Assembly (NCBI GenBank): GCA_003280095.1
Contig: QCGA01000009.1
Span: 1-46,859, forward strand
DNA: 46,859 nucleotides
Reading direction: 5' to 3'
Source: Prochlorococcus sp. AG-363-O16
GTDB taxonomy: Bacteria > Cyanobacteriota > Cyanobacteriia > PCC-6307 > Cyanobiaceae
Below are positions 1 through 15,749 of this stretch, piece by piece (position 1 is the stretch's first letter; every line of letters begins with the position of its first letter). A program made the translations under genes and the position numbers. A model generated the notes under the pieces. The model was not told the DNA's origin. It saw nothing but the letters and a program-made list of their open reading frames with translations, and did no database searches.

Positions 1-37
1 CAACCATGCTTATTTCAAAGTACTGATTGAGGAATGG

Positions 38-109
38 GTGAAGATAGAAGAAGAAAAGGATAAGAACTCTCTACTGAATTATAAATACAACCAAGATGAC
101 TATGTCTAA
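38..109 (+). CDS. Degenerate acidic leader peptide (copy 1)
   Basis: A 23-codon frame starts at GTG and reads EEEKDKNSLLNYKYNQDD before a stop. It overlaps the P450 start at 96 in another frame. It is recognisably related to the 37-aa acidic peptide at 10287-10400, which shares EEEK, K/NSLLNY and a DD-rich tail but has about 14 more residues in the middle. I infer a shortened and perhaps non-functional copy of that peptide gene. It may act only as a leader for the P450. There is no direct evidence that it is translated. Confidence 0.35.
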   Translation: MKIEEEKDKNSLLNYKYNQDDYV

Positions 110-1391
110 ATTGCGCCCTTTGCCAACCACTGGTGCCCTTACTGGAATTCTTGAGGCACTAGCATTTTTCCGCGATCCTAACTTCGCTCAAAGGCGATTT
201 GATCGTCTGGGAAATGTCTTTGAGACATCAATGCTTGGTCAGCCAATGGTGTTCATTCAGGGGAGCAAAGCTATTGCTGATTTATTGTCTCAACCGGAGG
301 CGATCGAAGGTTGGTGGCCGAAGAGTGTTCAACAACTTCTAGGTAGCCATTCACTCGCAAACCGCAATGGGGCATCTCATAAAGCAAGGAGAAGGGTAGT
401 AGCCCAGTTATTCTCATCTTCAGCACTTCAACGCTATAGCCCTGGCATTATCAACTTAATTGATGAGCTCGGCGAAGAACTAAAAGCCGCAAAAGCGCCT
501 CTCCCTTTGGCTGAGAGAATGCGACGTTTCGCGTTCTCTGTTATCGCGACAACTGTTCTTGGCCTAGAGGGGCATGATCGTGACAAGTTATTTTCTGATT
601 TCGAAATCTGGACCAAGGCTCTCTTCTCAATTCCCCTCGCTCTTCCAGGCAGTCCCTTTGCCAAAGCTCTCAAGGCAAGAAAACGTTTAATTGAAAAACT
701 TCAAGAAATAGTTAACCAACCTATCAATAGCAAAGGTGGCTTGGATTTACTTGCAGGGGGTCTTGATGAAGCAGGCATTCCTTTCGCAGATGAAGATTTG
801 GGAGAACAACTACTTCTACTGTTATTTGCTGGCTATGAAACCACAGCTTCTGCGTTGAGCTGCTTAATGCGGGAATTACTTCTCAATCCACAATTGGAAA
901 CATGGCTTCGTAAAGAAATCGATACCCTGGATTGGCCTCCAACACCTGAGCAGGCAACTATGGCTTACGACCCGACCAATGCGCAAAGACTCGATGCTCT
1001 CGTAAAAGAAGTAATGCGATTCACTCCACCAGTAGGTGGTTTTTTTCGCCGCACCAAGAAATCCTTGATCTTAGAAGATGACATTGTCGTTCCTAATGAT
1101 CGTGTAGTGCAAGTAGCTTTAATTGCTTCTAACCGTCATGGGATTGGTGATCTAGATATCTTTAGACCACAACGTCATCTAGAGAATGAAAGTTCTTTAA
1201 GCCTGATGCCTTTCGGTGGAGGCGAACGTGTATGCCTTGGCAAATCGTTAGCTGAACTTGAGATTCGACTGATGGTGGTTGGGTTATTTCGTAAATTGCA
1301 ACTTGAAGTTATCCCGGATCAAGACTTCACCCTACGGCAGATTCCCAGTCCATCTCCTCGTGATGGGTTATTAGTAAAAGTAAGAGGATGA
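96..1391 (+). CDS. Cytochrome P450 (copy 1)
   Basis: This is a full-length soluble-type P450 of 431 aa, a haem-thiolate monooxygenase that would need an external ferredoxin/reductase pair, since no reductase domain is present. Visible motifs are the I-helix AGYETT at residues 245-250 (oxygen activation), the K-helix ExxR at E305-R308, and the haem loop FGGGERVCLG at 373-382 with Cys380 as the iron ligand. No N-terminal membrane anchor is evident. The start ATGACTATG lies in a leader shared with the cargo gene at 10378. The gene overlaps the next by 4 bp (ATGA), so the two are probably co-transcribed. The glycine-rich haem loop resembles cyanobacterial CYP120-like enzymes, but the substrate cannot be read from sequence. 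P450s are uncommon in these streamlined genomes, which fits accessory cargo. Confidence 0.93.
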   Translation: MTMSKLRPLPTTGALTGILEALAFFRDPNFAQRRFDRLGNVFETSMLGQPMVFIQGSKAIADLLSQPEAIEGWWPKSVQQLLGSHSLANRNGASHKARRRVVAQLFSSSALQRYSPGIINLIDELGEELKAAKAPLPLAERMRRFAFSVIATTVLGLEGHDRDKLFSDFEIWTKALFSIPLALPGSPFAKALKARKRLIEKLQEIVNQPINSKGGLDLLAGGLDEAGIPFADEDLGEQLLLLLFAGYETTASALSCLMRELLLNPQLETWLRKEIDTLDWPPTPEQATMAYDPTNAQRLDALVKEVMRFTPPVGGFFRRTKKSLILEDDIVVPNDRVVQVALIASNRHGIGDLDIFRPQRHLENESSLSLMPFGGGERVCLGKSLAELEIRLMVVGLFRKLQLEVIPDQDFTLRQIPSPSPRDGLLVKVRG

Positions 1392-1615
1392 GATGGCCCC
1401 CCAACCAAGCCTGGACATCAACTTTCAAAAGAGAAGGCTATCGACATTTTGAAGTCAAGCAATATGGAGGAAAAAAAGATCAACGATGGGTCGAACTTTT
1501 TCCCGTCAACAACAAAGAGATTCTTATTCGAGTCTCGTGGGATGAACTAAAGACTCATTCACAATGGACAAGCGGCTGGCTCCAATTACCTAAAGATGAA
1601 GATTGCAGTGGATAG
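1388..1615 (+). CDS. TIGR02450-like Trp-rich small protein (copy 1)
   Basis: This 75-aa protein has the layout of the Trp-rich TIGR02450 family of cyanobacteria and some proteobacteria: an N-terminal AWTS, then RHFEV, a middle strand WVELFPV, and a C-terminal SWDELK...W..GW. The family has no established function. The start overlaps the P450 stop (ATGA), indicating translational coupling, so it may assist or accompany the oxygenase. The family assignment is from memory of the pattern and is fairly secure. The role is unknown. Confidence 0.8.
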   Translation: MRWPPNQAWTSTFKREGYRHFEVKQYGGKKDQRWVELFPVNNKEILIRVSWDELKTHSQWTSGWLQLPKDEDCSG

Positions 1616-1617
1616 AA

Positions 1618-1779
1618 ATGAGAACTGAACTTATTTGTTTTTCCTTGCTTGGAATCGCAGCTTTGCTTCTAGATGCTGGACTCGCCTCTCAATCTCTTCC
1701 GCTCTTTTGGTTAGTTCTTCCATTGGGAATAAAAATCAGCCTCGATGCCATGCAAAAACGCGCTGCTAAAAACAGCTAG
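1618..1779 (+). CDS. Small membrane peptide, 53 aa (copy 1)
   Basis: This short gene begins 2 bp after the TIGR02450-like stop. The peptide starts MRTELICFSLLGIAALLL, a hydrophobic helix. A second hydrophobic stretch (LPLFWLVLPLGIKI) follows, and the tail is basic (QKRAAKNS). It is probably a two-helix membrane peptide with a positively charged cytoplasmic end. I do not recognise a family. Tight spacing puts it in the P450 transcription unit. Confidence 0.6.
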   Translation: MRTELICFSLLGIAALLLDAGLASQSLPLFWLVLPLGIKISLDAMQKRAAKNS

Positions 1780-1805
1780 AAAGAGATTGAGCTCTCGAAA
1801 ATTAA

Positions 1806-2081
1806 TTGGCAATCTCAGTCACATCTCCCTGCCCTGAAAGCACAATCAACGAACTAGGAATCAAGCACTGGCCAATCTGGACTTGTGAGCCAAGTACATT
1901 CCCTTGGACATATAGCGACAAGGAAACTTGCTTAGTACTAGAAGGCGATGTGACTGTTACCCCTGATGGAGGGGAGCCTGTCAGGTTTGGGGTCGGTGAT
2001 CTAGTTGTCTTTCCTCAGGGGATGTCTTGTACATGGGAAGTGCATAAGGCAGTTCGAAAGCATTATCGTTTTGGCAACTAG
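1806..2081 (+). CDS. Cupin_3-like protein (copy 1)
   Basis: This 91-aa single-domain cupin resembles the Cupin_3 (DUF861, ureidoglycine-aminohydrolase-like) group. Visible signatures are PWTYSDKETCLVLEGDVTV (first cupin motif), then GEPVRFGVGDLVVFPQGM (second motif with the GD turn and FPxG), ending KHYRFG. These proteins form a small beta barrel. Enzymatic function is not predictable, and classical His ligands are largely replaced. The frame opens with TTG, and no ATG is available until residue 74, far inside the fold, so a TTG start is likely. It sits 26 bp behind the small membrane peptide. Confidence 0.82.
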   Translation: MAISVTSPCPESTINELGIKHWPIWTCEPSTFPWTYSDKETCLVLEGDVTVTPDGGEPVRFGVGDLVVFPQGMSCTWEVHKAVRKHYRFGN

Positions 2082-2109
2082 AAAATCTATGAACCCCTGA
2101 GATCGAGGG

Positions 2110-2131
2110 TTTATTCAAACTTTATTCAAAC
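2110..2131 (+). repeat. Tandem 11-bp direct repeat (copy 1)
   Basis: TTTATTCAAAC occurs twice, back to back, 37 bp before the start of the 60-aa gene. An 11-bp period is the spacing recognised by PhoB/OmpR-type response regulators, so this could be an operator. The motif itself does not match a regulator I can name. Confidence 0.4.
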
Positions 2132-2167
2132 TAGAGAAATGGTGAAAATAAAAGAAGTAGCGGCAGC

Positions 2168-2350
2168 ATGAAAGACCTTCCACCTCACTTCCTTCGCGAA
2201 AAAGAGAAAGAAGTTGTCTTCCATATTCCTGGTGCATTCCCAACACCGATGGTTGATGAACTAATGCAGGAATATTTCCCTGAATACAAGACTGTTCTTA
2301 TTCGCTGTGCTGAAACCTTTTATCGGATGCGTGAGAATGCAAGGGTATGA
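2168..2350 (+). CDS. Hypothetical protein, 60 aa (copy 1)
   Basis: This charged soluble peptide starts MKDLPPHFLREKEKEVVFHI and includes a PTPMVDELMQEYFP segment likely to be helical. I do not recognise a family. Its stop overlaps the start of the next small gene (GTATGA), a typical operon junction, which argues that it is a real gene. It follows an 86-bp gap containing a tandem 11-bp repeat, so it may start a new transcription unit. Confidence 0.6.
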   Translation: MKDLPPHFLREKEKEVVFHIPGAFPTPMVDELMQEYFPEYKTVLIRCAETFYRMRENARV

Positions 2351-2523
2351 CTGTTGATTGGAAAGAATCAGATGGAGCAGAGTGGAGGGAAGAGTTCAAG
2401 CAACTCAAAGGGACTGTCTCTATTGATGACCTCAAATTGCTGGATGAAGGAGCAACAACCATGAAAGAGGCATGGAGACTAAGCGCTCTTCATGCTGAAT
2501 ACAAACGACTGAAGAGAAACTAA
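2347..2523 (+). CDS. Hypothetical protein, 58 aa (copy 1)
   Basis: This frame overlaps the previous stop by 4 bp (ATGA). The 58-aa product starts MTVDWKESDGAEWREEFKQL and ends EYKRLKRN. It is highly charged, with two probable amphipathic helices. There is no recognised domain. The coupled start and intact frame support translation. The charge pattern resembles small accessory coiled-coil proteins, but no function is implied. Confidence 0.5.
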   Translation: MTVDWKESDGAEWREEFKQLKGTVSIDDLKLLDEGATTMKEAWRLSALHAEYKRLKRN

Positions 2524-2549
2524 CCACCAGACCTGCTAGATATTAAGCG

Positions 2550-2666
2550 ATGAACTATTCCGATGCGCTGTTGATATTTGCTCCCACCATTGGATTGGAG
2601 ATTTTCTTTGAGGTGATGAATATCATGATTACAAGGGTCTTCACCAATGACCGAAAAAGCAGATGA
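2550..2666 (+). CDS. Hydrophobic micropeptide, 38 aa (copy 1)
   Basis: The 38-codon frame starts MNYSDALLIFAPTIGLEIFF and ends TNDRKSR. It carries one clear transmembrane helix and a basic tail. The stop overlaps the next start (AGATGATTG), so it is plausibly co-translated with the 69-aa gene. I know no family for it. Its short length keeps confidence modest. Confidence 0.45.
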   Translation: MNYSDALLIFAPTIGLEIFFEVMNIMITRVFTNDRKSR

Positions 2667-2872
2667 TTGATGCCTACAGCTTTGAGCAATGCAAGAAAGA
2701 TAAGGAGATTAGACAACTCAAAATCAAGAACTTGGAGCATGCCATCTACCAGTCAGAAGCGATGATCGCTGAATCGCAAATGGATGGAGATGCCTTGACC
2801 TTTTTAAGGAGGAAGGTTGCCGACTCCAGGCAAGATCTAGAAGTGCTTTATTTAATAAATGATCAGGAGTAA
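2663..2872 (+). CDS. Coiled-coil small protein, 69 aa (copy 1)
   Basis: The product is mostly charged helix. The segments EQCKKDKEIRQLKIKNLEHA and FLRRKVADSRQDLEVLYL look coiled-coil-like. No catalytic motif is visible and no family is recognised. It overlaps the preceding micropeptide by 4 bp and directly abuts the next gene (TAA then ATG), so it sits in a continuous string of tiny genes. Confidence 0.55.
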   Translation: MIDAYSFEQCKKDKEIRQLKIKNLEHAIYQSEAMIAESQMDGDALTFLRRKVADSRQDLEVLYLINDQE

Positions 2873-3082
2873 ATGAGACCCTGCTACAAAAGACAAGAGG
2901 ACTCAATTGACACTGAGATTGTGACTATGGATTGGGACGCAGCCAAAGCACACTGCAAAGAGAAAAACTGGAAGTGGACTCTGAATTTGATCGACACGTA
3001 TCAGAAGGAGATGGAAGAACTAAAAGGCGAGAATGTGAAACTCAAGCGTCAGTTAGTCCTTCGCTCTCAACTGAACAAGTAA
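2873..3082 (+). CDS. Coiled-coil small protein, 69 aa (copy 1)
   Basis: It starts immediately after the preceding stop, with CAGGAG just upstream as a ribosome binding site. The product ends in a long charged helix, LIDTYQKEMEELKGENVKLK, typical of a coiled coil. An internal ATG at 2927 (MDWDAAKAH) is an alternative start. It resembles the preceding gene in size and character, but I cannot claim homology. Function unknown. An EVE-gene scar begins 18 bp downstream. Confidence 0.55.
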   Translation: MRPCYKRQEDSIDTEIVTMDWDAAKAHCKEKNWKWTLNLIDTYQKEMEELKGENVKLKRQLVLRSQLNK

Positions 3083-3100
3083 TGCCTAAGCACAATGAAG

Positions 3101-3189
3101 ACAGGCTTAATACCTGCTAACAGGTTCCATCCACACATTGCAATATCGCTGAGATCCCATGGCAGAACAGGAAATTAACTACTGGCTTA
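3101..3189 (+). repeat. EVE-gene 5' scar R1 (copy 1)
   Basis: This stretch mirrors the promoter and first codons of the intact EVE gene (14041-14139). ACAGGCTTAA is identical at both, the upstream region is similar, and the coding start reads M-A-E-Q-E-INYWL against M-T-E-INYWL. Homology ends at CTGGCTTA (3189), after which the frame runs into unrelated codons and stops at 3227. Bases 3127-3189 are identical over 63 bp to scar R2 (4991-5053). It is a truncated gene copy, not a functional gene. Confidence 0.85.
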
Positions 3190-3332
3190 CGACCCTGATA
3201 CAGAAGATCGAGGCATTACAGAATTGATCACTTTTAAGCACAGAAATGGTCCACTCGGCACGGTGAAACTCCTCTTTGAACCGCTGTTCAATCGGTTTAG
3301 AAACCTTGCTCATGAATAATTGACCCTGGCTT

Positions 3333-3746
3333 ATGAAATTCCTGCTAACTGGCCTGACGTCCTTTGCGCTATTTTCTGGCACTCATGCTTTGGGCATGAC
3401 ACTAGAAACAGATTTATTGGATGGAGTCGACGGAGGTTCAATAACTAAAGGAGCCCTGACCGCGTCCTTGAAGCATCGACATGAGGAAGTTAAATCGCGA
3501 TTATCCAATCAGATCAAAAGCTCTACTGCTTTCGTCACCGTCAAAGTGAATGGGGAAGTTGTCGGGACCGAGGTATGGATTGACGAAGGACATACTATAG
3601 ACAACGAAGTTACGTATCATGAAAGCACAAAATTTTGCGCAGCCATTATCCTCCCAATGCGCAATTCCCCTGAGGATTATAAAAATTTATACGTAGCTGA
3701 TAAGAGTATTGGCAGGAATATCTTCCTCATTGACTACCAGGAATAA
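3333..3746 (+). CDS. Secreted hypothetical protein (copy 1)
   Basis: This 137-aa protein has an N-terminal signal peptide, MKFLLTGLTSFALFSGTHA, likely cleaved after HA. The mature part is mixed beta (TAFVTVKVNGEVVGTEVWID) with no recognised domain and a single cysteine. It probably acts in the periplasm or thylakoid lumen. It converges with the metalloprotease gene, and their 3' ends overlap by 20 bp (3727-3746). Its start context CTGGCTTATGAAA (3326-3338) equals the EVE codons W-L-M-K in scar R2, so the gene begins where the scar would continue. Function unknown. Confidence 0.7.
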   Translation: MKFLLTGLTSFALFSGTHALGMTLETDLLDGVDGGSITKGALTASLKHRHEEVKSRLSNQIKSSTAFVTVKVNGEVVGTEVWIDEGHTIDNEVTYHESTKFCAAIILPMRNSPEDYKNLYVADKSIGRNIFLIDYQE

Positions 3747-4596
3747 ATCGCAAGGTATTTAGATCTCGATTGTACTTCCATTTCCCTGTCGTCTTTCCTC
3801 TTAATTCATCTTCAGAGTTGGGGTTATAGCTCTTGAGGAAATTAATCATTGCAGCCCTTCGATCGTCATAGCCGGGATGGGTTGAATCTTCTTTTGTTTC
3901 CTCTCCAAGGCCTTCATGCCTAGCTCTAAAATCATATTCATCTAAACATGTATTTCTAGGTAGCCCTGCATTAATAATCATTTTGCTAGCATTAAGATCA
4001 GCATTACTTTCAGATTCTCTGGAAATACTATTAGACAAAATCTCTCTCTTCTTTTCTTTTAAATTTTTACCTTCTCTGCCTTCACGAAGATTATCTTTGA
4101 AAATATCATCATTTAAAACATGGCTTAATTCATGACCTAGCAAGCAGGCAAAAAAGTTATCTTTTCCCTGATAACTTTGAAAAGAAGATCTACTAATTAA
4201 AATCACTCCATGGGACCAAGCATAACCTTCAATACCGTTAAATAAATAAGCTTGCCGAATTATCTCATTGATGTCTTTAGAAGATTCACCTATATAAGAT
4301 TCAAATGGATTTAATTCTCCATAGAAATTACATTCATCCTCTTTGCATAAGCTCAGTTCTTCTGCCAACCAATTGGCTTTGCTGCCAGTATTAATAATAA
4401 AAGTGATGGGTCGATCTCCTAGGTCATTCTTTGCTGCCAGCTTGTTAAAGACTCGTTTGATCGTCTTGTATTCCTCTGGCATGAATAGCTGAGAGGTTTG
4501 CCAAGTCTTGATGCCTCCAAAAACGGCCAAGACACTACCAGCGATAGCGGCTATATAAGTCGGCCAGCTTTTTCTGTTTCCCATCTTGCTGCTCAT
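3727..4596 (-). CDS. M48-like membrane metalloprotease (copy 1)
   Basis: This 289-aa protein has an N-terminal membrane helix (about residues 13-30, YIAAIAGSVLAVFGGI) and a zinc-protease signature HELSH at 155-159 within LLGHELSHVL. Downstream ESESNAD supplies the candidate third ligand, and THPGYDDR matches the THPP..R signature common in M48 peptidases. It is probably a membrane-anchored zinc endopeptidase; substrate and topology are unknown. Four cysteines in the pre-catalytic region may suggest a location outside the cytoplasm. It is divergent from HtpX and from typical BepA-like proteins, having no TPR domain. It is convergent with the secreted-protein gene. Confidence 0.82.
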   Translation of the reverse strand: MSSKMGNRKSWPTYIAAIAGSVLAVFGGIKTWQTSQLFMPEEYKTIKRVFNKLAAKNDLGDRPITFIINTGSKANWLAEELSLCKEDECNFYGELNPFESYIGESSKDINEIIRQAYLFNGIEGYAWSHGVILISRSSFQSYQGKDNFFACLLGHELSHVLNDDIFKDNLREGREGKNLKEKKREILSNSISRESESNADLNASKMIINAGLPRNTCLDEYDFRARHEGLGEETKEDSTHPGYDDRRAAMINFLKSYNPNSEDELRGKTTGKWKYNRDLNTLRFIPGSQ

Positions 4597-4990
4597 AAGA
4601 AGCCAGTGTTGCTTAGAAGAGGATGTCGATCAAGGGCAACCTGCTCAATATTTGACAGAAATGTCTCAGCGGCTTTAAACGACCCAGTCAGGAGATAGAA
4701 GCCCCCATACGTCCCCATTCGGAAAGCAGATCAAGGGAAAAAGACTTGAATACTCGTCTAAGAAACACGCACCGACTTGGCATCACTGGATCAGCCAGCC
4801 TTGTGTGGATAGGTTCTGAACTTTGTGTGGATATGAACTAGAGCAATTCAAGTAAATCCCTTATTCAACGGGCTGTCTCAGTAGCGAACATCTATTGCGA
4901 GCAAGGATATTTATATCGCATGCGATCTGTTTGGAATTAGAAATAACTAGCGATTAAATTAGAAAGTAATTGGGGTACCAAAATCTTTGG
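4597..4990. other. Gene-poor stretch before scar R2 (copy 1)
   Basis: About 390 bp hold no convincing gene. The stretch would contain the promoter for the metalloprotease (minus strand). TTGTGTGGATA occurs at 4801-4811 and again at 4823-4833, 22 bp apart. Each contains TGTGGATA, an 8-of-9 match to the reverse complement of the DnaA box TTATCCACA. A short open stretch without a start codon (about 4840-4938) might be a gene remnant. Confidence 0.6.
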
Positions 4991-5076
4991 CCATCCACAC
5001 ATTGCAATATCGCTGAGATCCCATGGCAGAACAGGAAATTAACTACTGGCTTATGAAAAGCGGCATTTGAGTGGTG
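4991..5076 (+). repeat. EVE-gene 5' scar R2 (copy 1 / duplication junction)
   Basis: This is a truncated copy of the EVE start region. The ATG at 5023 opens MAEQEINYWLMKSGI and then stops at 5070, against MTEINYWLMKSEP in the intact gene. The first 63 bp equal scar R1. The duplicated block ends at 5076 inside this scar, and a degenerate spacer leads to the second P450 unit. It is probably the hybrid product of recombination between two scars. Confidence 0.88.
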
Positions 5077-5158
5077 TAAAGGTATTACAAGGAAACGCTA
5101 AAACAAATACAAACTAAATACCAACCATGCTTATTTCAAAGTACTGATTGAGGAATGG

Positions 5159-5230
5159 GTGAAGATAGAAGAAGAAAAGGATAAGAACTCTCTACTGAAT
5201 TATAAATACAACCAAGATGACTATGTCTAA
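5159..5230 (+). CDS. Degenerate acidic leader peptide (copy 2)
   Basis: This is identical to 38-109: a GTG-start 23-codon frame overlapping the P450 start, related to the 37-aa acidic peptide at 10287. It is probably a leader or remnant. Confidence 0.35.
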   Translation: MKIEEEKDKNSLLNYKYNQDDYV

Positions 5231-6512
5231 ATTGCGCCCTTTGCCAACCACTGGTGCCCTTACTGGAATTCTTGAGGCACTAGCATTTTTCCGCGATCCT
5301 AACTTCGCTCAAAGGCGATTTGATCGTCTGGGAAATGTCTTTGAGACATCAATGCTTGGTCAGCCAATGGTGTTCATTCAGGGGAGCAAAGCTATTGCTG
5401 ATTTATTGTCTCAACCGGAGGCGATCGAAGGTTGGTGGCCGAAGAGTGTTCAACAACTTCTAGGTAGCCATTCACTCGCAAACCGCAATGGGGCATCTCA
5501 TAAAGCAAGGAGAAGGGTAGTAGCCCAGTTATTCTCATCTTCAGCACTTCAACGCTATAGCCCTGGCATTATCAACTTAATTGATGAGCTCGGCGAAGAA
5601 CTAAAAGCCGCAAAAGCGCCTCTCCCTTTGGCTGAGAGAATGCGACGTTTCGCGTTCTCTGTTATCGCGACAACTGTTCTTGGCCTAGAGGGGCATGATC
5701 GTGACAAGTTATTTTCTGATTTCGAAATCTGGACCAAGGCTCTCTTCTCAATTCCCCTCGCTCTTCCAGGCAGTCCCTTTGCCAAAGCTCTCAAGGCAAG
5801 AAAACGTTTAATTGAAAAACTTCAAGAAATAGTTAACCAACCTATCAATAGCAAAGGTGGCTTGGATTTACTTGCAGGGGGTCTTGATGAAGCAGGCATT
5901 CCTTTCGCAGATGAAGATTTGGGAGAACAACTACTTCTACTGTTATTTGCTGGCTATGAAACCACAGCTTCTGCGTTGAGCTGCTTAATGCGGGAATTAC
6001 TTCTCAATCCACAATTGGAAACATGGCTTCGTAAAGAAATCGATACCCTGGATTGGCCTCCAACACCTGAGCAGGCAACTATGGCTTACGACCCGACCAA
6101 TGCGCAAAGACTCGATGCTCTCGTAAAAGAAGTAATGCGATTCACTCCACCAGTAGGTGGTTTTTTTCGCCGCACCAAGAAATCCTTGATCTTAGAAGAT
6201 GACATTGTCGTTCCTAATGATCGTGTAGTGCAAGTAGCTTTAATTGCTTCTAACCGTCATGGGATTGGTGATCTAGATATCTTTAGACCACAACGTCATC
6301 TAGAGAATGAAAGTTCTTTAAGCCTGATGCCTTTCGGTGGAGGCGAACGTGTATGCCTTGGCAAATCGTTAGCTGAACTTGAGATTCGACTGATGGTGGT
6401 TGGGTTATTTCGTAAATTGCAACTTGAAGTTATCCCGGATCAAGACTTCACCCTACGGCAGATTCCCAGTCCATCTCCTCGTGATGGGTTATTAGTAAAA
6501 GTAAGAGGATGA
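5217..6512 (+). CDS. Cytochrome P450 (copy 2)
   Basis: This gene has the same sequence as 96-1391, with every motif (AGYETT, ExxR, FGGGERVCLG with Cys380) intact. Here the full upstream context is visible: scar R2, then a degenerate spacer (5077-5140), then the peptide remnant. Two identical P450 genes in tandem would raise gene dosage if the duplication is real. The complete absence of divergence means neither copy has begun to specialise. Confidence 0.93.
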   Translation: MTMSKLRPLPTTGALTGILEALAFFRDPNFAQRRFDRLGNVFETSMLGQPMVFIQGSKAIADLLSQPEAIEGWWPKSVQQLLGSHSLANRNGASHKARRRVVAQLFSSSALQRYSPGIINLIDELGEELKAAKAPLPLAERMRRFAFSVIATTVLGLEGHDRDKLFSDFEIWTKALFSIPLALPGSPFAKALKARKRLIEKLQEIVNQPINSKGGLDLLAGGLDEAGIPFADEDLGEQLLLLLFAGYETTASALSCLMRELLLNPQLETWLRKEIDTLDWPPTPEQATMAYDPTNAQRLDALVKEVMRFTPPVGGFFRRTKKSLILEDDIVVPNDRVVQVALIASNRHGIGDLDIFRPQRHLENESSLSLMPFGGGERVCLGKSLAELEIRLMVVGLFRKLQLEVIPDQDFTLRQIPSPSPRDGLLVKVRG

Positions 6513-6736
6513 GATGGCCCCCCAACCAAGCCTGGACATCAACTTTCAAAAGAGAAGGCTATCGACATTTTGAAGTCAAGCAATATGGAGGAAAAAAAGA
6601 TCAACGATGGGTCGAACTTTTTCCCGTCAACAACAAAGAGATTCTTATTCGAGTCTCGTGGGATGAACTAAAGACTCATTCACAATGGACAAGCGGCTGG
6701 CTCCAATTACCTAAAGATGAAGATTGCAGTGGATAG
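6509..6736 (+). CDS. TIGR02450-like Trp-rich small protein (copy 2)
   Basis: This is identical to 1388-1615, including the 4-bp ATGA overlap with the P450 stop. It is a small protein of unknown function with conserved Trp and RHF positions. Confidence 0.8.
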   Translation: MRWPPNQAWTSTFKREGYRHFEVKQYGGKKDQRWVELFPVNNKEILIRVSWDELKTHSQWTSGWLQLPKDEDCSG

Positions 6737-6738
6737 AA

Positions 6739-6900
6739 ATGAGAACTGAACTTATTTGTTTTTCCTTGCTTGGAATCGCAGCTTTGCTTCTAGATGCTGG
6801 ACTCGCCTCTCAATCTCTTCCGCTCTTTTGGTTAGTTCTTCCATTGGGAATAAAAATCAGCCTCGATGCCATGCAAAAACGCGCTGCTAAAAACAGCTAG
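6739..6900 (+). CDS. Small membrane peptide, 53 aa (copy 2)
   Basis: This is identical to 1618-1779: two hydrophobic segments and a basic tail, starting 2 bp after the TIGR02450-like stop. Confidence 0.6.
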   Translation: MRTELICFSLLGIAALLLDAGLASQSLPLFWLVLPLGIKISLDAMQKRAAKNS

Positions 6901-6926
6901 AAAGAGATTGAGCTCTCGAAAATTAA

Positions 6927-7202
6927 TTGGCAATCTCAGTCACATCTCCCTGCCCTGAAAGCACAATCAACGAACTAGGAATCAAGCACTGGCCAATCTG
7001 GACTTGTGAGCCAAGTACATTCCCTTGGACATATAGCGACAAGGAAACTTGCTTAGTACTAGAAGGCGATGTGACTGTTACCCCTGATGGAGGGGAGCCT
7101 GTCAGGTTTGGGGTCGGTGATCTAGTTGTCTTTCCTCAGGGGATGTCTTGTACATGGGAAGTGCATAAGGCAGTTCGAAAGCATTATCGTTTTGGCAACT
7201 AG
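6927..7202 (+). CDS. Cupin_3-like protein (copy 2)
   Basis: This is identical to 1806-2081. It is a single small cupin domain with a TTG start, and its function is unknown. Confidence 0.82.
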   Translation: MAISVTSPCPESTINELGIKHWPIWTCEPSTFPWTYSDKETCLVLEGDVTVTPDGGEPVRFGVGDLVVFPQGMSCTWEVHKAVRKHYRFGN

Positions 7203-7230
7203 AAAATCTATGAACCCCTGAGATCGAGGG

Positions 7231-7252
7231 TTTATTCAAACTTTATTCAAAC
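7231..7252 (+). repeat. Tandem 11-bp direct repeat (copy 2)
   Basis: TTTATTCAAAC is repeated back to back, the duplicate of 2110-2131, ahead of the 60-aa gene. Confidence 0.4.
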
Positions 7253-7288
7253 TAGAGAAATGGTGAAAATAAAAGAAGTAGCGGCAGC

Positions 7289-7471
7289 ATGAAAGACCTT
7301 CCACCTCACTTCCTTCGCGAAAAAGAGAAAGAAGTTGTCTTCCATATTCCTGGTGCATTCCCAACACCGATGGTTGATGAACTAATGCAGGAATATTTCC
7401 CTGAATACAAGACTGTTCTTATTCGCTGTGCTGAAACCTTTTATCGGATGCGTGAGAATGCAAGGGTATGA
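7289..7471 (+). CDS. Hypothetical protein, 60 aa (copy 2)
   Basis: This is identical to 2168-2350. It is a charged small protein with no recognised family, and its stop overlaps the next start. Confidence 0.6.
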   Translation: MKDLPPHFLREKEKEVVFHIPGAFPTPMVDELMQEYFPEYKTVLIRCAETFYRMRENARV

Positions 7472-7644
7472 CTGTTGATTGGAAAGAATCAGATGGAGCA
7501 GAGTGGAGGGAAGAGTTCAAGCAACTCAAAGGGACTGTCTCTATTGATGACCTCAAATTGCTGGATGAAGGAGCAACAACCATGAAAGAGGCATGGAGAC
7601 TAAGCGCTCTTCATGCTGAATACAAACGACTGAAGAGAAACTAA
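7468..7644 (+). CDS. Hypothetical protein, 58 aa (copy 2)
   Basis: This is identical to 2347-2523. It is a charged, probably helical small protein with an ATGA overlap to the preceding gene. Confidence 0.5.
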   Translation: MTVDWKESDGAEWREEFKQLKGTVSIDDLKLLDEGATTMKEAWRLSALHAEYKRLKRN

Positions 7645-7670
7645 CCACCAGACCTGCTAGATATTAAGCG

Positions 7671-7787
7671 ATGAACTATTCCGATGCGCTGTTGATATTT
7701 GCTCCCACCATTGGATTGGAGATTTTCTTTGAGGTGATGAATATCATGATTACAAGGGTCTTCACCAATGACCGAAAAAGCAGATGA
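7671..7787 (+). CDS. Hydrophobic micropeptide, 38 aa (copy 2)
   Basis: This is identical to 2550-2666. It has one transmembrane helix and a basic tail, and it overlaps the next start. Confidence 0.45.
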   Translation: MNYSDALLIFAPTIGLEIFFEVMNIMITRVFTNDRKSR

Positions 7788-7993
7788 TTGATGCCTACAG
7801 CTTTGAGCAATGCAAGAAAGATAAGGAGATTAGACAACTCAAAATCAAGAACTTGGAGCATGCCATCTACCAGTCAGAAGCGATGATCGCTGAATCGCAA
7901 ATGGATGGAGATGCCTTGACCTTTTTAAGGAGGAAGGTTGCCGACTCCAGGCAAGATCTAGAAGTGCTTTATTTAATAAATGATCAGGAGTAA
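7784..7993 (+). CDS. Coiled-coil small protein, 69 aa (copy 2)
   Basis: This is identical to 2663-2872. It is a charged helical protein of unknown function within the tiny-gene string. Confidence 0.55.
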   Translation: MIDAYSFEQCKKDKEIRQLKIKNLEHAIYQSEAMIAESQMDGDALTFLRRKVADSRQDLEVLYLINDQE

Positions 7994-8203
7994 ATGAGAC
8001 CCTGCTACAAAAGACAAGAGGACTCAATTGACACTGAGATTGTGACTATGGATTGGGACGCAGCCAAAGCACACTGCAAAGAGAAAAACTGGAAGTGGAC
8101 TCTGAATTTGATCGACACGTATCAGAAGGAGATGGAAGAACTAAAAGGCGAGAATGTGAAACTCAAGCGTCAGTTAGTCCTTCGCTCTCAACTGAACAAG
8201 TAA
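7994..8203 (+). CDS. Coiled-coil small protein, 69 aa (copy 2)
   Basis: This is identical to 2873-3082. It abuts the preceding stop and ends in a coiled-coil-like helix. Confidence 0.55.
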   Translation: MRPCYKRQEDSIDTEIVTMDWDAAKAHCKEKNWKWTLNLIDTYQKEMEELKGENVKLKRQLVLRSQLNK

Positions 8204-8221
8204 TGCCTAAGCACAATGAAG

Positions 8222-8310
8222 ACAGGCTTAATACCTGCTAACAGGTTCCATCCACACATTGCAATATCGCTGAGATCCCATGGCAGAACAGGAAATTAAC
8301 TACTGGCTTA
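8222..8310 (+). repeat. EVE-gene 5' scar R1 (copy 2)
   Basis: This is the duplicate of 3101-3189: EVE promoter-like sequence plus codons M-A-E-Q-E-INYWL from the ATG at 8280, then divergence. Confidence 0.85.
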
Positions 8311-8453
8311 CGACCCTGATACAGAAGATCGAGGCATTACAGAATTGATCACTTTTAAGCACAGAAATGGTCCACTCGGCACGGTGAAACTCCTCTTTGA
8401 ACCGCTGTTCAATCGGTTTAGAAACCTTGCTCATGAATAATTGACCCTGGCTT

Positions 8454-8867
8454 ATGAAATTCCTGCTAACTGGCCTGACGTCCTTTGCGCTATTTTCTGG
8501 CACTCATGCTTTGGGCATGACACTAGAAACAGATTTATTGGATGGAGTCGACGGAGGTTCAATAACTAAAGGAGCCCTGACCGCGTCCTTGAAGCATCGA
8601 CATGAGGAAGTTAAATCGCGATTATCCAATCAGATCAAAAGCTCTACTGCTTTCGTCACCGTCAAAGTGAATGGGGAAGTTGTCGGGACCGAGGTATGGA
8701 TTGACGAAGGACATACTATAGACAACGAAGTTACGTATCATGAAAGCACAAAATTTTGCGCAGCCATTATCCTCCCAATGCGCAATTCCCCTGAGGATTA
8801 TAAAAATTTATACGTAGCTGATAAGAGTATTGGCAGGAATATCTTCCTCATTGACTACCAGGAATAA
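8454..8867 (+). CDS. Secreted hypothetical protein (copy 2)
   Basis: This is identical to 3333-3746: a signal peptide followed by an unrecognised mixed-beta domain, 3' overlapping the metalloprotease gene by 20 bp. Confidence 0.7.
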   Translation: MKFLLTGLTSFALFSGTHALGMTLETDLLDGVDGGSITKGALTASLKHRHEEVKSRLSNQIKSSTAFVTVKVNGEVVGTEVWIDEGHTIDNEVTYHESTKFCAAIILPMRNSPEDYKNLYVADKSIGRNIFLIDYQE

Positions 8868-9717
8868 ATCGCAAGGTATTTAGATCTCGATTGTACTTCC
8901 ATTTCCCTGTCGTCTTTCCTCTTAATTCATCTTCAGAGTTGGGGTTATAGCTCTTGAGGAAATTAATCATTGCAGCCCTTCGATCGTCATAGCCGGGATG
9001 GGTTGAATCTTCTTTTGTTTCCTCTCCAAGGCCTTCATGCCTAGCTCTAAAATCATATTCATCTAAACATGTATTTCTAGGTAGCCCTGCATTAATAATC
9101 ATTTTGCTAGCATTAAGATCAGCATTACTTTCAGATTCTCTGGAAATACTATTAGACAAAATCTCTCTCTTCTTTTCTTTTAAATTTTTACCTTCTCTGC
9201 CTTCACGAAGATTATCTTTGAAAATATCATCATTTAAAACATGGCTTAATTCATGACCTAGCAAGCAGGCAAAAAAGTTATCTTTTCCCTGATAACTTTG
9301 AAAAGAAGATCTACTAATTAAAATCACTCCATGGGACCAAGCATAACCTTCAATACCGTTAAATAAATAAGCTTGCCGAATTATCTCATTGATGTCTTTA
9401 GAAGATTCACCTATATAAGATTCAAATGGATTTAATTCTCCATAGAAATTACATTCATCCTCTTTGCATAAGCTCAGTTCTTCTGCCAACCAATTGGCTT
9501 TGCTGCCAGTATTAATAATAAAAGTGATGGGTCGATCTCCTAGGTCATTCTTTGCTGCCAGCTTGTTAAAGACTCGTTTGATCGTCTTGTATTCCTCTGG
9601 CATGAATAGCTGAGAGGTTTGCCAAGTCTTGATGCCTCCAAAAACGGCCAAGACACTACCAGCGATAGCGGCTATATAAGTCGGCCAGCTTTTTCTGTTT
9701 CCCATCTTGCTGCTCAT
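8848..9717 (-). CDS. M48-like membrane metalloprotease (copy 2)
   Basis: This is identical to 3727-4596. HELSH (155-159), ESESNAD and THPGYDDR are intact, with one N-terminal membrane helix. Confidence 0.82.
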   Translation of the reverse strand: MSSKMGNRKSWPTYIAAIAGSVLAVFGGIKTWQTSQLFMPEEYKTIKRVFNKLAAKNDLGDRPITFIINTGSKANWLAEELSLCKEDECNFYGELNPFESYIGESSKDINEIIRQAYLFNGIEGYAWSHGVILISRSSFQSYQGKDNFFACLLGHELSHVLNDDIFKDNLREGREGKNLKEKKREILSNSISRESESNADLNASKMIINAGLPRNTCLDEYDFRARHEGLGEETKEDSTHPGYDDRRAAMINFLKSYNPNSEDELRGKTTGKWKYNRDLNTLRFIPGSQ

Positions 9718-10111
9718 AAGAAGCCAGTGTTGCTTAGAAGAGGATGTCGATCAAGGGCAACCTGCTCAATATTTGACAGAAATGTCTCAGCGGCTTTAAA
9801 CGACCCAGTCAGGAGATAGAAGCCCCCATACGTCCCCATTCGGAAAGCAGATCAAGGGAAAAAGACTTGAATACTCGTCTAAGAAACACGCACCGACTTG
9901 GCATCACTGGATCAGCCAGCCTTGTGTGGATAGGTTCTGAACTTTGTGTGGATATGAACTAGAGCAATTCAAGTAAATCCCTTATTCAACGGGCTGTCTC
10001 AGTAGCGAACATCTATTGCGAGCAAGGATATTTATATCGCATGCGATCTGTTTGGAATTAGAAATAACTAGCGATTAAATTAGAAAGTAATTGGGGTACC
10101 AAAATCTTTGG
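9718..10111. other. Gene-poor stretch before scar R2 (copy 2)
   Basis: This is the duplicate of 4597-4990. It again contains two TTGTGTGGATA repeats, 22 bp apart (9922-9932 and 9944-9954), with partial DnaA-box character. I see no gene. Confidence 0.6.
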
Positions 10112-10197
10112 CCATCCACACATTGCAATATCGCTGAGATCCCATGGCAGAACAGGAAATTAACTACTGGCTTATGAAAAGCGGCATTTGAGTGGTG
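10112..10197 (+). repeat. EVE-gene 5' scar R2 (copy 2)
   Basis: The truncated EVE start has its ATG at 10144, giving MAEQEINYWLMKSGI then stop. It closes the second duplicated unit. Beyond 10197 comes a spacer that carries the tandem TTCACAC motif also found upstream of the intact EVE gene. Confidence 0.88.
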
Positions 10198-10228
10198 GAG
10201 AGGGGTCTCAAGGAATTGCGATATTTAG

Positions 10229-10246
10229 TTCACACAAAATTCACAC
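10229..10246 (+). promoter_or_regulatory. Tandem TTCACAC motif, 11-bp period
   Basis: TTCACACAA is followed by TTCACAC with 11-bp spacing. The same pair stands at 11784-11801 and, ahead of the intact EVE gene, at 14072-14089. Conservation at three sites whose downstream cargo differs suggests an operator or recombination-protein site that travels with the EVE 5' region. Confidence 0.5.
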
Positions 10247-10286
10247 CATTCTTCTTTAATAAGTACTGATTGATGAATAGGTGAAA

Positions 10287-10400: not shown

Positions 10401-10746
10401 TGAAATAACCGTGAAAAAGTCTTTTGATTTGCTGGTATATGAAGCTGTTTCACACATACCATTTGGTCAAGTCGCTACCTATGGTCAAATAGCTGAATTA
10501 ATTGGTGCATATGGGTGTGCACGGCAAATTGGATGGTCCTTAAAGAGATTGCGCTTGCCTTCAAAAATTCCTTGGCATCGAGTCATAAATGCCAAAGGGG
10601 AAGTATCAATGAGTATTGGTCGAGAGGGAACTGACTGGATCCAAATAGATTTATTGAAAAGCGAAGGTGTTTTTATAGATCAGGAATTAAAGATTCAACT
10701 ACGCAGGTATTTATGGAAACCAGATCTATTGAAAGATTCGGAATAG
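10378..10746 (+). CDS. Alkyltransferase-like protein (ATL / MGMT-fold)
   Basis: This is the DNA-binding domain of O6-alkylguanine-DNA alkyltransferases: FGQVATYGQIAEL (helix-turn-helix), GCARQIGWSLKRL with the Arg finger, and PWHRVINAKG. In true transferases the motif is PCHRV with the acceptor Cys. Here Trp replaces Cys (W66 from this start), as in ATL proteins such as E. coli YbaZ and yeast Atl1. Those bind O6-alkylguanine and flag it for nucleotide excision repair without transferring the alkyl group. I chose the ATG at 10378. In-frame ATGs at 10336, 10357 and 10372 lie in the acidic-peptide gene and would add an unlikely N-terminus. The gene probably heads a unit with the two genes downstream. 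Confidence 0.85.
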   Translation: MVSTGRPNEITVKKSFDLLVYEAVSHIPFGQVATYGQIAELIGAYGCARQIGWSLKRLRLPSKIPWHRVINAKGEVSMSIGREGTDWIQIDLLKSEGVFIDQELKIQLRRYLWKPDLLKDSE

Positions 10747-10755
10747 AAAGACGAT

Positions 10756-11127
10756 ATGACAACTAAAGAGAGCAATGAAGAAAGGAAAGAACGCTTCAAG
10801 GCAATGTCTAGTGCTGATAGGAAAGCATTAATAAGAGCAAAAATGAAAGCCGAAGGGTTACAAGAAGGGAGTGGGGTTCCAGGGAAAGACTTGTCTTCAT
10901 ATGACCGAGATGAGATCTGGGGTCTAATCCAAGTGACTAGCTGTTTCCCTGAGATGCGAAGCGAACCAAGAGCAATGAAGCCAAATGCTCCTAGCAAAAA
11001 AAAATCCTTAATTGCTTGGATACTGATTGCAATAGCTCTGAGAGGTGGAATGGTCTTGTATTACCGCCAATTTCCATCGCCAGATACAAGAAGAGAGTTA
11101 TCAGTAGATGCAATGTTTGCTGATTAA
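10756..11127 (+). CDS. Hypothetical protein with C-terminal membrane helix
   Basis: This 123-aa protein has a charged N-terminal half (KESNEERKERFKAMSSADRK, probably helical), a middle DLSSYDRDEIWGLIQVTSCF, and one transmembrane helix near residues 78-96 (SLIAWILIAIALRGGMVLYY). A short tail follows. It starts 9 bp after the ATL stop, so it is likely co-transcribed. No family is recognised. The topology suggests a membrane-tethered cytoplasmic protein. Confidence 0.65.
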   Translation: MTTKESNEERKERFKAMSSADRKALIRAKMKAEGLQEGSGVPGKDLSSYDRDEIWGLIQVTSCFPEMRSEPRAMKPNAPSKKKSLIAWILIAIALRGGMVLYYRQFPSPDTRRELSVDAMFAD

Positions 11128-11147
11128 GTTACGAAACCGTCCTTAAT

Positions 11148-11630: not shown

Positions 11631-11680
11631 GAGGATGAAAAATAATCCACATTATTTCTAAGTTAACTCTGTCCGAACCC

Positions 11681-11746
11681 TGTAATTCCCCGAGATCAAC
11701 TGGTATGAAAAGTATTAACTACTGGTTAATGAAAAGCGGCATTTGA
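11681..11746 (+). repeat. EVE-gene 5' scar R3
   Basis: This is a third, more diverged truncated EVE start. The ATG at 11705 gives MKSINYWLMKSGI then stop, within upstream sequence (CTGTAATTCCCCGAGATC) resembling the EVE leader. About 100 bp later the TTCACAC pair and TACTGGCTAATGA (11818-11830) appear; the latter is identical to the intact gene's Y-W-L-M codons. The locus therefore holds two nested remnants. Divergence from R1/R2 suggests an older event. Confidence 0.8.
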
Positions 11747-11783
11747 GTGGTGGAAAGCGATTACAAGGAATTGGAAAAATCCG

Positions 11784-11801
11784 TTCACACAAAGTTCACA
11801 C
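11784..11801 (+). promoter_or_regulatory. Tandem TTCACAC motif, 11-bp period
   Basis: TTCACACAA is followed by TTCACAC with 11-bp spacing, the same pair seen at 10229-10246 and 14072-14089. It lies between two EVE-gene remnants. Confidence 0.5.
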
Positions 11802-11855
11802 CACTCTTATTTCATAAGTACTGGCTAATGAGAGATGAAACAGAGACCTTTTTTT

Positions 11856-11867
11856 GGGGGGGGGGGG
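11856..11867 (+). repeat. Homopolymeric G12 tract
   Basis: Twelve consecutive G follow seven T. Such a run is rare in AT-leaning cyanobacterial DNA. It would be prone to slipped-strand length change and to sequencing error. Confidence 0.8.
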
Positions 11868-12882: not shown

Positions 12883-12892
12883 AAACCAAATA

Positions 12893-13876: not shown

Positions 13877-14115
13877 ATTTTGGGTCCTACTTACCAATTC
13901 ATTTTCGGTCATCCGAAGGCTCTAAATCTTCCTGGAGTCTTGCCCTAGGAATCCCAACAGAACAGACTGAGTGAATGCAACCCTCTCCCCTTTCCTTTGT
14001 CTCCCCATACCCTTCAAAGCTTTTCTGAGGCAGAATAAAAACAGGCTTAAGAACTGCTCGTTTTCCAAAAGTTCACACAAGATTCACACACTGCAATTCG
14101 CCCAAATCCCTTGCT
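13877..14115 (+). promoter_or_regulatory. EVE gene upstream region
   Basis: These 239 bp precede the intact EVE gene. The right half (14041 on) is the template seen in scar R1. It carries ACAGGCTTAA at 14041-14050, and a tandem TTCACAC pair with 11-bp spacing at 14072-14089, about 27 bp before the start. No clear terminator for the SHOCT operon was found. Confidence 0.6.
14072..14089 (+). promoter_or_regulatory. Tandem TTCACAC motif upstream of EVE gene
   Basis: TTCACACAA and TTCACAC are spaced 11 bp apart, ending 26 bp before the ATG. The same pair occurs at 10229 and 11784. It is a candidate operator of a direct-repeat-binding regulator, or part of an integration site. Confidence 0.5.
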
Positions 14116-14580
14116 ATGACTGAGATAAACTACTGGCTAATGAAAAGCGAGCCAAATGCTTACAGCATCAATGACCTTCAAAAAGAAGAAAAAACCATCT
14201 GGGACGGAATTCGGAATTATCAAGCCAGAAACTTTATGCGTTCAATGCAAATTGACGATCAAGCTTTCTTCTATCATTCAAACTGCACACCACCCTGCAT
14301 AGTGGGTCTAATGAAAGTAATAGAAACTAATATCATTGACCCTACGCAATTTGATCCCACAGCTAAATATTACGATCCAAAATCGAAAAAAGATAACCCC
14401 AGGTGGGACTGTGTAAAGCTAAAATATCTAGCAAGCTTTACTCAAAAACTATCTTTGGAAAAATTGCGTGAGTTATACAAACCAGAAGAGCTACCTGTCC
14501 TCAAAAAGGGAAACCGTCTATCAATACTCCCTGTTCCAAAAACAACTGCGATTGACCTTCTCTCAAGATTAATGAACTAA
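14116..14580 (+). CDS. EVE-domain (PUA-like) protein, intact
   Basis: This 154-aa single EVE domain has the expected signatures: YWLMKSEPNAYSINDL, then WDGIRNYQARNFMRSM, FFYHSN and IVGLMKV. EVE domains are related to PUA and YTH and are thought to bind modified bases in RNA or DNA; human THYN1 and bacterial homologues share the fold. Its own role in cyanobacteria is not established. Full length matches the family (about 150 aa). It is the only complete copy here. At least five truncated copies of its 5' end lie upstream, each ending within the first 15 codons, so this locus looks like a repeated target for insertion or recombination. Confidence 0.92.
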   Translation: MTEINYWLMKSEPNAYSINDLQKEEKTIWDGIRNYQARNFMRSMQIDDQAFFYHSNCTPPCIVGLMKVIETNIIDPTQFDPTAKYYDPKSKKDNPRWDCVKLKYLASFTQKLSLEKLRELYKPEELPVLKKGNRLSILPVPKTTAIDLLSRLMN

Positions 14581-14769
14581 ATTAATAGAGGGTAGAAAAG
14601 CTTAGCCAGGTTTCAGTAGAGTCAGTCTAACTAAAAGAATCGAAAATTTTACAAAGTCAATTTAATAAATACGATAAATATATCTTTAATCTACAATTAA
14701 AAATATTTAATTTCTTATGAAAAGATATATTAGTAGTCTTCTTATGAATGGAGAAAATTATTTTCAGTT

Positions 14770-15747: not shown

Positions 15748-15749
15748 AT

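What the first reader, a model, noticed from the sequence alone, without database searches (positions are those of the whole stretch)
1618..3082. String of overlapping micro-genes of unknown function
Six genes of 38-69 aa plus the cupin run with ATGA overlaps or immediate stop-start contacts. At least two are membrane peptides and two coiled coils. Coupled, intact frames of such small proteins in a cargo block suggest a multi-component system, perhaps a toxin/antitoxin, phage defence or membrane complex acting with the P450 operon. None has a recognisable family.
Basis: partly seen in the sequence, partly recalled or inferred. Interest (0 to 1): 0.5.

Follow-up and report, generated by a model that had tools for sequence, protein, structure and literature searches.

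The report
Orphaned micro-gene operon in cassette array
The string of tiny genes is real: in other genomes of the marine cyanobacterium Prochlorococcus the same kinds of genes sit in the same order behind a DNA-cutting recombinase, and here a piece of that operon without its recombinase rides as one cassette in a gene array that seems to have grown at the start of a single conserved gene.

Summary
The micro-genes are real: frames are conserved in relatives, pooled dN/dS 0.10-0.39. The string is two units. The TM peptide and cupin end a P450 cassette; five genes (E-I, 2168-3082) form a second cassette.

Outside this array, relatives of E-I lie downstream of a DNA-invertase-type serine recombinase: 19 of 30 recombinase loci fetched, with an ATGA overlap of recombinase stop and next ATG in 18 of 30. 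Eleven micro-gene families follow in a fixed order with variable membership: 209 of 211 ordered pairs agree. Three of them and the recombinase have phage relatives. The window keeps a recombinase-tail-like remnant before E and a stub after I, but no recombinase.

The cassette lies in an array anchored on the 5' end of a single-copy EVE-domain gene (14116-14580). A ~150-bp linker model matched 119 times in 12 other AT-rich genomes, 112 of them in the EVE region; one of the 12 has only its EVE start. Five GC-rich relatives had no match, a sixth only its EVE start. No recombinase explains the array; the function of the micro-proteins is inferred.

The parts
96..1391 (+). cytochrome P450, first large gene of the neighbouring cassette
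   Evidence: PF00067 4.7e-43; ATGA overlap with next gene
1388..1615 (+). TIGR02450 / DUF2389 Trp-rich protein
   Evidence: TIGR02450 2.1e-18, PF09493 3.4e-17; dN/dS 0.10 in 7 sequences
1618..1779 (+). 53-aa hydrophobic (membrane) peptide, belongs to the P450 cassette
   Evidence: dN/dS 0.39 in 10 sequences
1806..2081 (+). Cupin_3 protein, last gene of the P450 cassette
   Evidence: PF05899 3e-31; dN/dS 0.10
2114..2131 (+). box: direct repeat TTCAAAC-N4-TTCAAAC; junction of the P450 cassette and the E-I cassette (EVE-start linker absent here)
   Evidence: block boundaries 2112-2131
2136..2171 (+). probable remnant of a serine-recombinase C-terminus (..KIKEVAAA*), stop overlapping the ATG of E
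   Evidence: up to 19 of 24 nt identical to recombinase tails; 0.4% of 1369 ATGA contexts do as well
2168..2350 (+). micro-gene E (60 aa; predicted beta-beta-alpha-beta-alpha)
   Evidence: dN/dS 0.27; AF2 pLDDT 84; E types follow the recombinase in other loci
2347..2523 (+). micro-gene F (58 aa here, 68 aa in the 9 other copies compared); related to part of a T4-like cyanophage protein
   Evidence: phrog_16908 3.6e-9; 39 phage records at E <= 0.1
2550..2666 (+). micro-gene G (38-aa hydrophobic peptide)
   Evidence: dN/dS 0.20 in 16 sequences
2663..2872 (+). micro-gene H (69 aa, coiled-coil-like by eye)
   Evidence: dN/dS 0.11 in 13 sequences; 19 Prochlorococcus loci
2873..3082 (+). micro-gene I (69 aa, coiled-coil-like by eye)
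   Evidence: dN/dS 0.29 in 8 sequences
3082..3120 (+). 12-codon stub at the place of gene K (TAATG overlap kept, then unrelated)
   Evidence: complete K 110 aa in L046 5724-6053
3123..3188 (+). partial EVE-start linker, right end of the E-I cassette
   Evidence: nhmmer 1.4e-16
4991..5127 (+). EVE-start linker (core at 5041)
   Evidence: nhmmer 3.9e-30
7235..8248 (+). second, identical copy of the E-I cassette
   Evidence: 1-5076 = 5122-10197
10112..10248 (+). EVE-start linker
   Evidence: nhmmer 1.3e-33
11660..11803 (+). EVE-start linker
   Evidence: nhmmer 2.3e-30
14072..14089 (+). box upstream of the intact EVE gene
14116..14580 (+). intact EVE-domain gene (family named from its sequence, recalled), anchor of the array
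   Evidence: one match in each of 22 genomes searched; intact at array end

Best explanation
SHOWN by comparison: genes E-I correspond to a fragment of an ordered, largely ATGA-chained micro-gene operon that in other loci is headed by a small serine recombinase (resolvase/DNA invertase type). In the window the recombinase and the downstream genes are gone. The E-I piece lies as one cassette in an array of short segments upstream of, and oriented like, an intact EVE-domain gene. The segments are separated by ~150-bp linkers that repeat the start of the EVE gene. The TM peptide and cupin belong to the neighbouring P450 cassette. INFERRED: the array grew by repeated site-specific insertion into the 5' end of the EVE gene. 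Each insert brought a new EVE start, and the linkers act as att sites (core with inverted repeats and paired direct-repeat arms). The recombinase acts in trans or was lost. INFERRED, weaker: the micro-proteins are phage-related accessory proteins of the recombinase module, co-expressed by ATGA coupling, and active in host-cyanophage conflict. In the window they are passengers.
For: Frames under purifying selection. Recombinase-micro-gene association: 19 of 30 PF00239 loci fetched carry E/F/G/H/I/K relatives downstream (some weak, such as L213 and L219 at 33-43% in F), ATGA recombinase-stop/ATG overlap in 18 of 30, order agreement 209 of 211 pairs with 24 different contents in 26 rows, own-genome paralogues F, G and part of I behind a recombinase at G000:C2. 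Remnant recombinase tail before E. Phage link: recombinase phrog_125 7.3e-59 and 1.1e-40; the 46-aa gene phrog_685 1.9e-18, in 330 of 50,697 phage records; F phrog_16908 4.1e-10; a 58-aa gene phrog_2128 3.3e-8. Array: linker model 112 of 119 matches in the EVE region of 12 AT-rich genomes; in the eight regions with an intact EVE, 71 of 71 linkers are on the EVE strand; one EVE match per genome in 22 genomes; perfect box repeats near +67 from the core in 63 of 144 core-like sites, 54 of them exactly at +67, against 0.57% of random windows. In G151 the EVE site holds no linker but its own start and one weak match (E 0.0014), so a nearly empty site exists.
Against: No tyrosine recombinase (PF00589) lies in the array of the single-contig genomes, and the PF00239 matches lie outside the arrays too (nearest: G026:C2, ~8 kb from a core site). 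None of 20 tyrosine-recombinase regions fetched has a linker. Only G108:C38 has a tyrosine recombinase near linkers, and its 96%-identical relative in G046 has none in 19 kb. Seven of 119 linker matches lie away from the EVE region, and in G026 11 linkers run the other way. Box pairing within elements is modest (7 of 24 identical, 2.7 expected, p 0.006, some elements homologous). E, H and I have no phage tblastn match (G and TM53 were not searched). Folds: no significant neighbour for E (PDB, BFVD) or F (PDB). Eleven of 30 recombinase loci lack the micro-genes. No expression data. Copies with stops exist.
Confidence: 0.72

Rival explanations
1. The linkers are repeated promoter regions (the boxes are regulator sites), and the array grew by ordinary homologous recombination between these repeats, without site-specific recombination.
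For: The box at 14072 starts 44 nt before the EVE ATG and the box at 2114 starts 54 nt before the ATG of E; an 11-bp period suits response-regulator sites (recalled); no recombinase found in the arrays.
Against: The repeat includes the first EVE codons and a 20-nt core, which a promoter does not need. Every region that reached the EVE gene has it intact at the same end. The 7-mers differ between sites while the two halves match. Box sequence is shared across a cargo more often than across a linker (7 of 24 against 2 of 28).
Confidence: 0.25
2. E-I is a self-contained toxin-antitoxin or anti-phage defence system selected as cargo.
For: Coupled small genes, a membrane peptide, purifying selection, a phage-related member.
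Against: No Pfam, NCBIfam or PADLOC family (one weak PADLOC match of H). Membership varies: single genes are absent or replaced while order is kept, which is unusual for an obligate pair.
Confidence: 0.15
3. The micro-genes are regulators of the adjacent recombinase (directionality factor or cofactors), now orphaned.
For: Position behind the recombinase with ATGA coupling in 18 of 30 loci, across recombinases that differ strongly.
Against: Neighbours are exchangeable; the cassette persists without recombinase in the array; F and the 46-aa gene occur in phages next to other genes.
Confidence: 0.2
4. Decaying debris of an old prophage or island without function.
For: F shortened in the window; copies with stops; truncated ends.
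Against: dN/dS 0.11-0.29 for E-I (on intact copies), and all five frames kept in several genomes.
Confidence: 0.15

Closest known systems
Tandem ssrA-specific genomic islands of Dehalococcoides (PMC3146451; abstract, outline and the section 'ssrA Genomic Islands' read)
   Same: One single-copy anchor, several islands in tandem, each bounded by a partial repeat of the anchor, mixed cargo.
   Different: Anchor there is the 3' end of a tmRNA gene and 16 of 31 islands carry an integration module with serine recombinases; here the anchor is the 5' end of a protein gene, neighbouring linkers lie ~0.5 to 9 kb apart or more (which looked only below 9 kb), and no integrase was found in the arrays of the single-contig genomes.
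dusA-associated islands (PMC4482086; abstract and outline seen)
   Different: The integrase gene is the one universal feature of dusA islands; none was found in the EVE arrays of the single-contig genomes, which hold many cassettes.
Tycheposons of Prochlorococcus (original paper not held; passages about them in PMC10872708 seen)
   Same: Cargo-carrying islands in the same organism group.
   Different: Described there with tRNA genes at the border and a tyrosine recombinase; here an EVE gene anchor and no recombinase in the arrays looked at.
Integron cassette arrays (recalled)
   Same: One-sided array of short cassettes separated by a common recombination-site-like sequence, mostly in one orientation.
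   Different: No integron integrase seen by the array; cassettes often hold several genes; the linker derives from a host gene start.
Phage DNA invertases, phrog_125
   Same: Two recombinases that head the operons belong to this family.
   Different: The paper searches made (listings) showed no invertase operon with an ordered chain of micro-gene families.

Membership tests
Serine-recombinase-headed micro-gene operon (defined here) | PF00239 gene directly upstream | tested here: not met
   Absent in the window; only a tail-like remnant at 2136-2171. Present in other loci.
Serine-recombinase-headed micro-gene operon (defined here) | Same gene families in the same order (E-F-G-H-I) | tested here: met
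   L046 has E(65-aa type)-F-G-H-I-K behind the recombinase.
Serine-recombinase-headed micro-gene operon (defined here) | ATGA chaining of genes | tested here: met
   E/F and G/H in the window; F/G coupling lost by the short F.
Tandem site-specific island array | One intact anchor gene at one end | tested here: met
   Intact EVE at the array end in 8 regions (G000, G058, G039, G003, G052, G014, G007, G011), in 11 AT-rich regions and in G374.
Tandem site-specific island array | Partial anchor repeats in one orientation at element borders | tested here: met
   71 of 71 linkers on the EVE strand in the eight regions with EVE, 161 of 172 on one strand overall; 112 of 119 in the EVE region.
Tandem site-specific island array | Integrase gene within elements | tested here: not met
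   PF00589 searched in 82 genomes; only G108:C38 near linkers. In draft genomes nearness was judged only against the exact core matches that one search listed, and that list was cut.
Tandem site-specific island array | Excised circles or precise empty sites | tested here: inconclusive
   Circles not testable. G151 has a nearly linker-free EVE site, but it was not compared with a close filled relative.
Tycheposon | tRNA anchor | tested here: not met
   No tRNA in the window; anchor is the EVE gene.
Tycheposon | Tyrosine recombinase in the element | tested here: not met
   with the exception of G108:C38.
Integron | Integron integrase beside the array | tested here: not met
   No PF00589 match in the array regions of G058, G039, G003, G031, G052, G010.
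Integron | attC-type folded sites | not tested
   Inverted repeat seen by eye in the linker consensus; no fold test done.
Toxin-antitoxin or known defence system | Match to a known family | tested here: not met
   (one weak PADLOC match of H, E 0.0018).

The most novel reading that the evidence does not exclude
Two linked, undescribed modular systems shape the flexible genome of Prochlorococcus. One is a cassette array that grows at the 5' end of the EVE-domain gene across AT-rich (high-light-type) and GC-richer (low-light-type) lineages, through an att site with element-specific arm repeats and a recombinase acting in trans. The other is a DNA-invertase-headed operon whose micro-genes, some shared with T4-like cyanophages, are gained and lost gene by gene in a fixed order at stop-start overlaps. 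Pieces of the second system are captured as cassettes by the first.
Probability: 0.35. Interest if true: 0.85.

Novelty: new variant of a known kind. Interest (0 to 1): 0.68.

Why it matters
Prochlorococcus is among the most abundant photosynthetic organisms, and how its genomic islands form outside tRNA genes is, to my knowledge, open. A searchable EVE-anchored array with a defined linker makes island growth testable strain by strain. The recombinase-headed micro-gene operon gives a context to many tiny unannotated proteins and links some of them to cyanophages.

Tried and rejected
Rejected: one joint system with the P450 (blocks occur apart). Rejected: chance ORFs. Not supported: a viral carrier of the linker (core pattern in viral contigs gave 6 matches whose context does not look like a linker). 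Viral-contig scans with F, H and I alignments gave no relative. Foldseek for E (PDB, BFVD) and F (PDB): no match at E <= 0.001. Considered: the ~388-aa tyrosine recombinase as the in-trans enzyme. It lies beside a ferrochelatase-like gene (named by eye) in the 5 single-contig genomes opened for it (G031, G058, G003, G010, G039); nothing ties it to the array and it was not searched in the GC-rich genomes. Considered: the tyrosine recombinase plus small HTH-like ORF in G108:C38; its close relative in G046:C16 has no linkers. Inverted repeats around recombinase operons: the 66-nt pair in L226 is part of a repeated sRNA-like element, so it was not taken as an inversion site. A copy of a recombinase 3' tail lies right behind E in 6 loci (L191, L193, L194, L196, L198, L200), which suggests insertion at the recombinase end; not developed further. 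The box pattern alone is not confined to one place in every genome: G026, G011 and G052 have matches elsewhere.

Full report
WHAT IS THERE. All 19 loci found by gene H in the named genome collection are titled Prochlorococcus (18 contigs), so I take the window as Prochlorococcus; its GC is 42%. The reported ORFs exist, but the string is not continuous: it overlaps or touches only at E/F, G/H and H/I.

CODING. dN/dS pooled over all pairs is 0.10 to 0.39 for the eight small genes of the two blocks. The rows were hand-picked: rows with stop codons, frameshifted pieces, most short partial hits and a few further copies were left out; 12 tblastn pieces with stops are listed. The alignments are almost free of internal gaps.

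TWO BLOCKS. Against 400 family genomes the DNA of 1388-3130 matches in 174, in recurrent sub-blocks, several of which meet at window 2112-2131 (maps). Left of this point are P450, TIGR02450, the TM peptide and the cupin. Right of it are E-F-G-H-I. The blocks occur apart in other genomes.

ORIGIN OF E-I. In loci without EVE linkers (L046, L049, L055, L068, L072), E-I relatives follow a ~180-210-aa serine recombinase (PF00239, 6.3e-28 to 2.5e-38 for the three tested). I searched 44 chosen genomes for PF00239: 33 have a match. Of the 30 loci handed out, 19 contain E/F/G/H/I/K relatives, downstream on the same strand, and in 18 of 30 the recombinase stop overlaps the next ATG as ATGA. The first gene may be an E type, F or an unrelated small ORF; 11 of 30 have no relative. 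With longer flanks and clustering an order appears: E, F, G, H, LprI-like, m11, m5, m3 or I, K, m2. In a hand-made table of 26 rows (the window is one), 209 of 211 ordered pairs agree and 24 contents differ. The two exceptions are E/H in L068 and L072. Some rows may be homologous loci, so they are not independent.

THE WINDOW COPY IS A FRAGMENT. Just before E the DNA reads KIKEVAAA*, whose stop overlaps the ATG of E. It matches recombinase tails at up to 19 of 24 nt, reached by 0.4% of 1369 ATGA contexts from the same loci (some of those contexts are themselves such junctions). After I the TAATG overlap of gene K is kept but K is a 12-codon stub. F is 58 codons instead of 68 in the 9 other copies compared.

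PHAGE LINK. Two recombinases match phrog_125, DNA invertase (7.3e-59, 1.1e-40). F matches phrog_16908 and part of a ~130-aa protein of T4-like cyanophages that lies beside uvsY in the two annotated genomes opened. The 46-aa gene m5 matches phrog_685 (1.9e-18) and 330 of 50,697 phage records. m11 matches phrog_2128 (3.3e-8). E, H and I gave no phage match; G was not searched by tblastn. AF2 models: E mean pLDDT 84, F 75; no structural neighbour at E <= 0.001 (E; F, PDB only). PADLOC: one weak match of H only.

THE ARRAY. Intergenic DNA around the blocks repeats the start of the EVE-domain gene at 14116. Truncated EVE starts recur upstream of an intact EVE gene in the same orientation. A 152-column profile from 75 sites finds 172 linkers in 19 of 21 regions, 161 on one strand; the 11 others are all in G026. 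In the eight regions where one search found an intact EVE gene, 71 of 71 linkers are on its strand; the other regions were turned by me. Each full linker has a box (7-mer, 4 nt, same 7-mer) ~57 nt before the core and another near +67. Perfect repeats occur at 48 and 63 of 144 core-like sites (54 of the 63 exactly at +67), against 0.57% of random windows. The 7-mers vary between sites. Within an element the left and right boxes are identical in 7 of 24 cases (2.7 expected, p 0.006); within a linker in 2 of 28 (2.9 expected). A 780-bp element counted three times weakens this, and G026 was left out.

HOW GENERAL. EVE has one match in each of 22 genomes. Upstream linkers are present in all 11 AT-rich regions and absent in eight GC-rich ones; a ninth, G034, has one weak match (E 0.0044) besides its own EVE start. 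A sequence-only linker model was searched in 19 whole genomes; only the 150 best candidates per genome were scored, so counts are lower bounds. In 12 AT-rich genomes other than the window's own it matches 119 times: 112 in the EVE region, seven elsewhere (three in G052, two in G160, one each in G172 and G367). The EVE position of G374 and G151 was checked afterwards. G151 has only its EVE start plus one weak match 10 kb upstream, a nearly empty site. In G031 the matches span 1,568,264-1,677,016. Five GC-rich genomes have none, and G034 has only its EVE start. The window's own genome has 6 on C9, 6 on C17 and 1 on C1.

NO ENZYME FOUND. PF00589 recombinases were listed for 82 genomes. In the single-contig genomes among them none lies in the array. 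Among 20 recombinase regions fetched, none has a linker. The exception is G108:C38. PF00239 matches lie outside the arrays too. Thus the insertion mechanism is inferred from anatomy and from precedents: tandem ssrA islands (PMC3146451) and dusA 5'-end islands (PMC4482086, abstract).

NOVELTY. Ten searches of the paper library, of which I saw listings only except for four papers opened, pointed to no description of an EVE-anchored array or of the recombinase-headed micro-gene operon. Subscription journals and most preprints are not held. The function of E-I remains inference.

Noticed in passing
window 1-5076 and 5122-10197: Perfect 5076-bp tandem copy at the contig end; the identity ends just behind the att-like core of a linker. 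Real duplication, unrolled circle or assembly artefact cannot be told apart.
   Followed up: partly
L226 1261-1380 and relatives in 15 other loci: A repeated ~115-bp element upstream of many recombinase operons carries, on the opposite strand, the ACTCCTCACAC motif of Yfr1/Yfr10 sRNAs (motif recalled; passages of PMC6778093) and a terminator-like hairpin; a Cyano-1 (RF01701) match lies beside it in L226 and L231.
   Followed up: partly
G000:C17 (L056) 10656-17812: A second stretch of EVE linkers in the window's own genome, perhaps the upstream continuation of the same array.
   Followed up: no
L167 (G108:C38) 11466-12629 and 13229-13444: Tyrosine recombinase and a small HTH-like ORF near EVE linkers; the same recombinase in G046:C16 has no linkers.
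   Followed up: partly
L049 1859-2167: An LprI-like gene (PF07007, 1e-4) sits between H and I in this locus, and relatives occupy the same zone in L222 and L227.
   Followed up: no
window 3727-4596 (minus strand): 289-aa protein with a GHELSH motif, metallopeptidase-like by eye, in the cassette next to E-I; no family search other than PHROGs was made on it alone, and it was one of 105 ORFs.
   Followed up: no
window 11856-11867: A run of 12 G after a run of T behind a linker, a likely hypermutable or error-prone tract.
   Followed up: no
L046 3914-4151: An inverted second copy of H just upstream of the recombinase, 92% complementary to the copy inside the operon: a possible trace of DNA inversion.
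   Followed up: no
L241 (G151:C1:1350500-1370000): EVE gene with no full linker upstream in ~17 kb, a nearly empty site in an AT-rich genome.
   Followed up: partly
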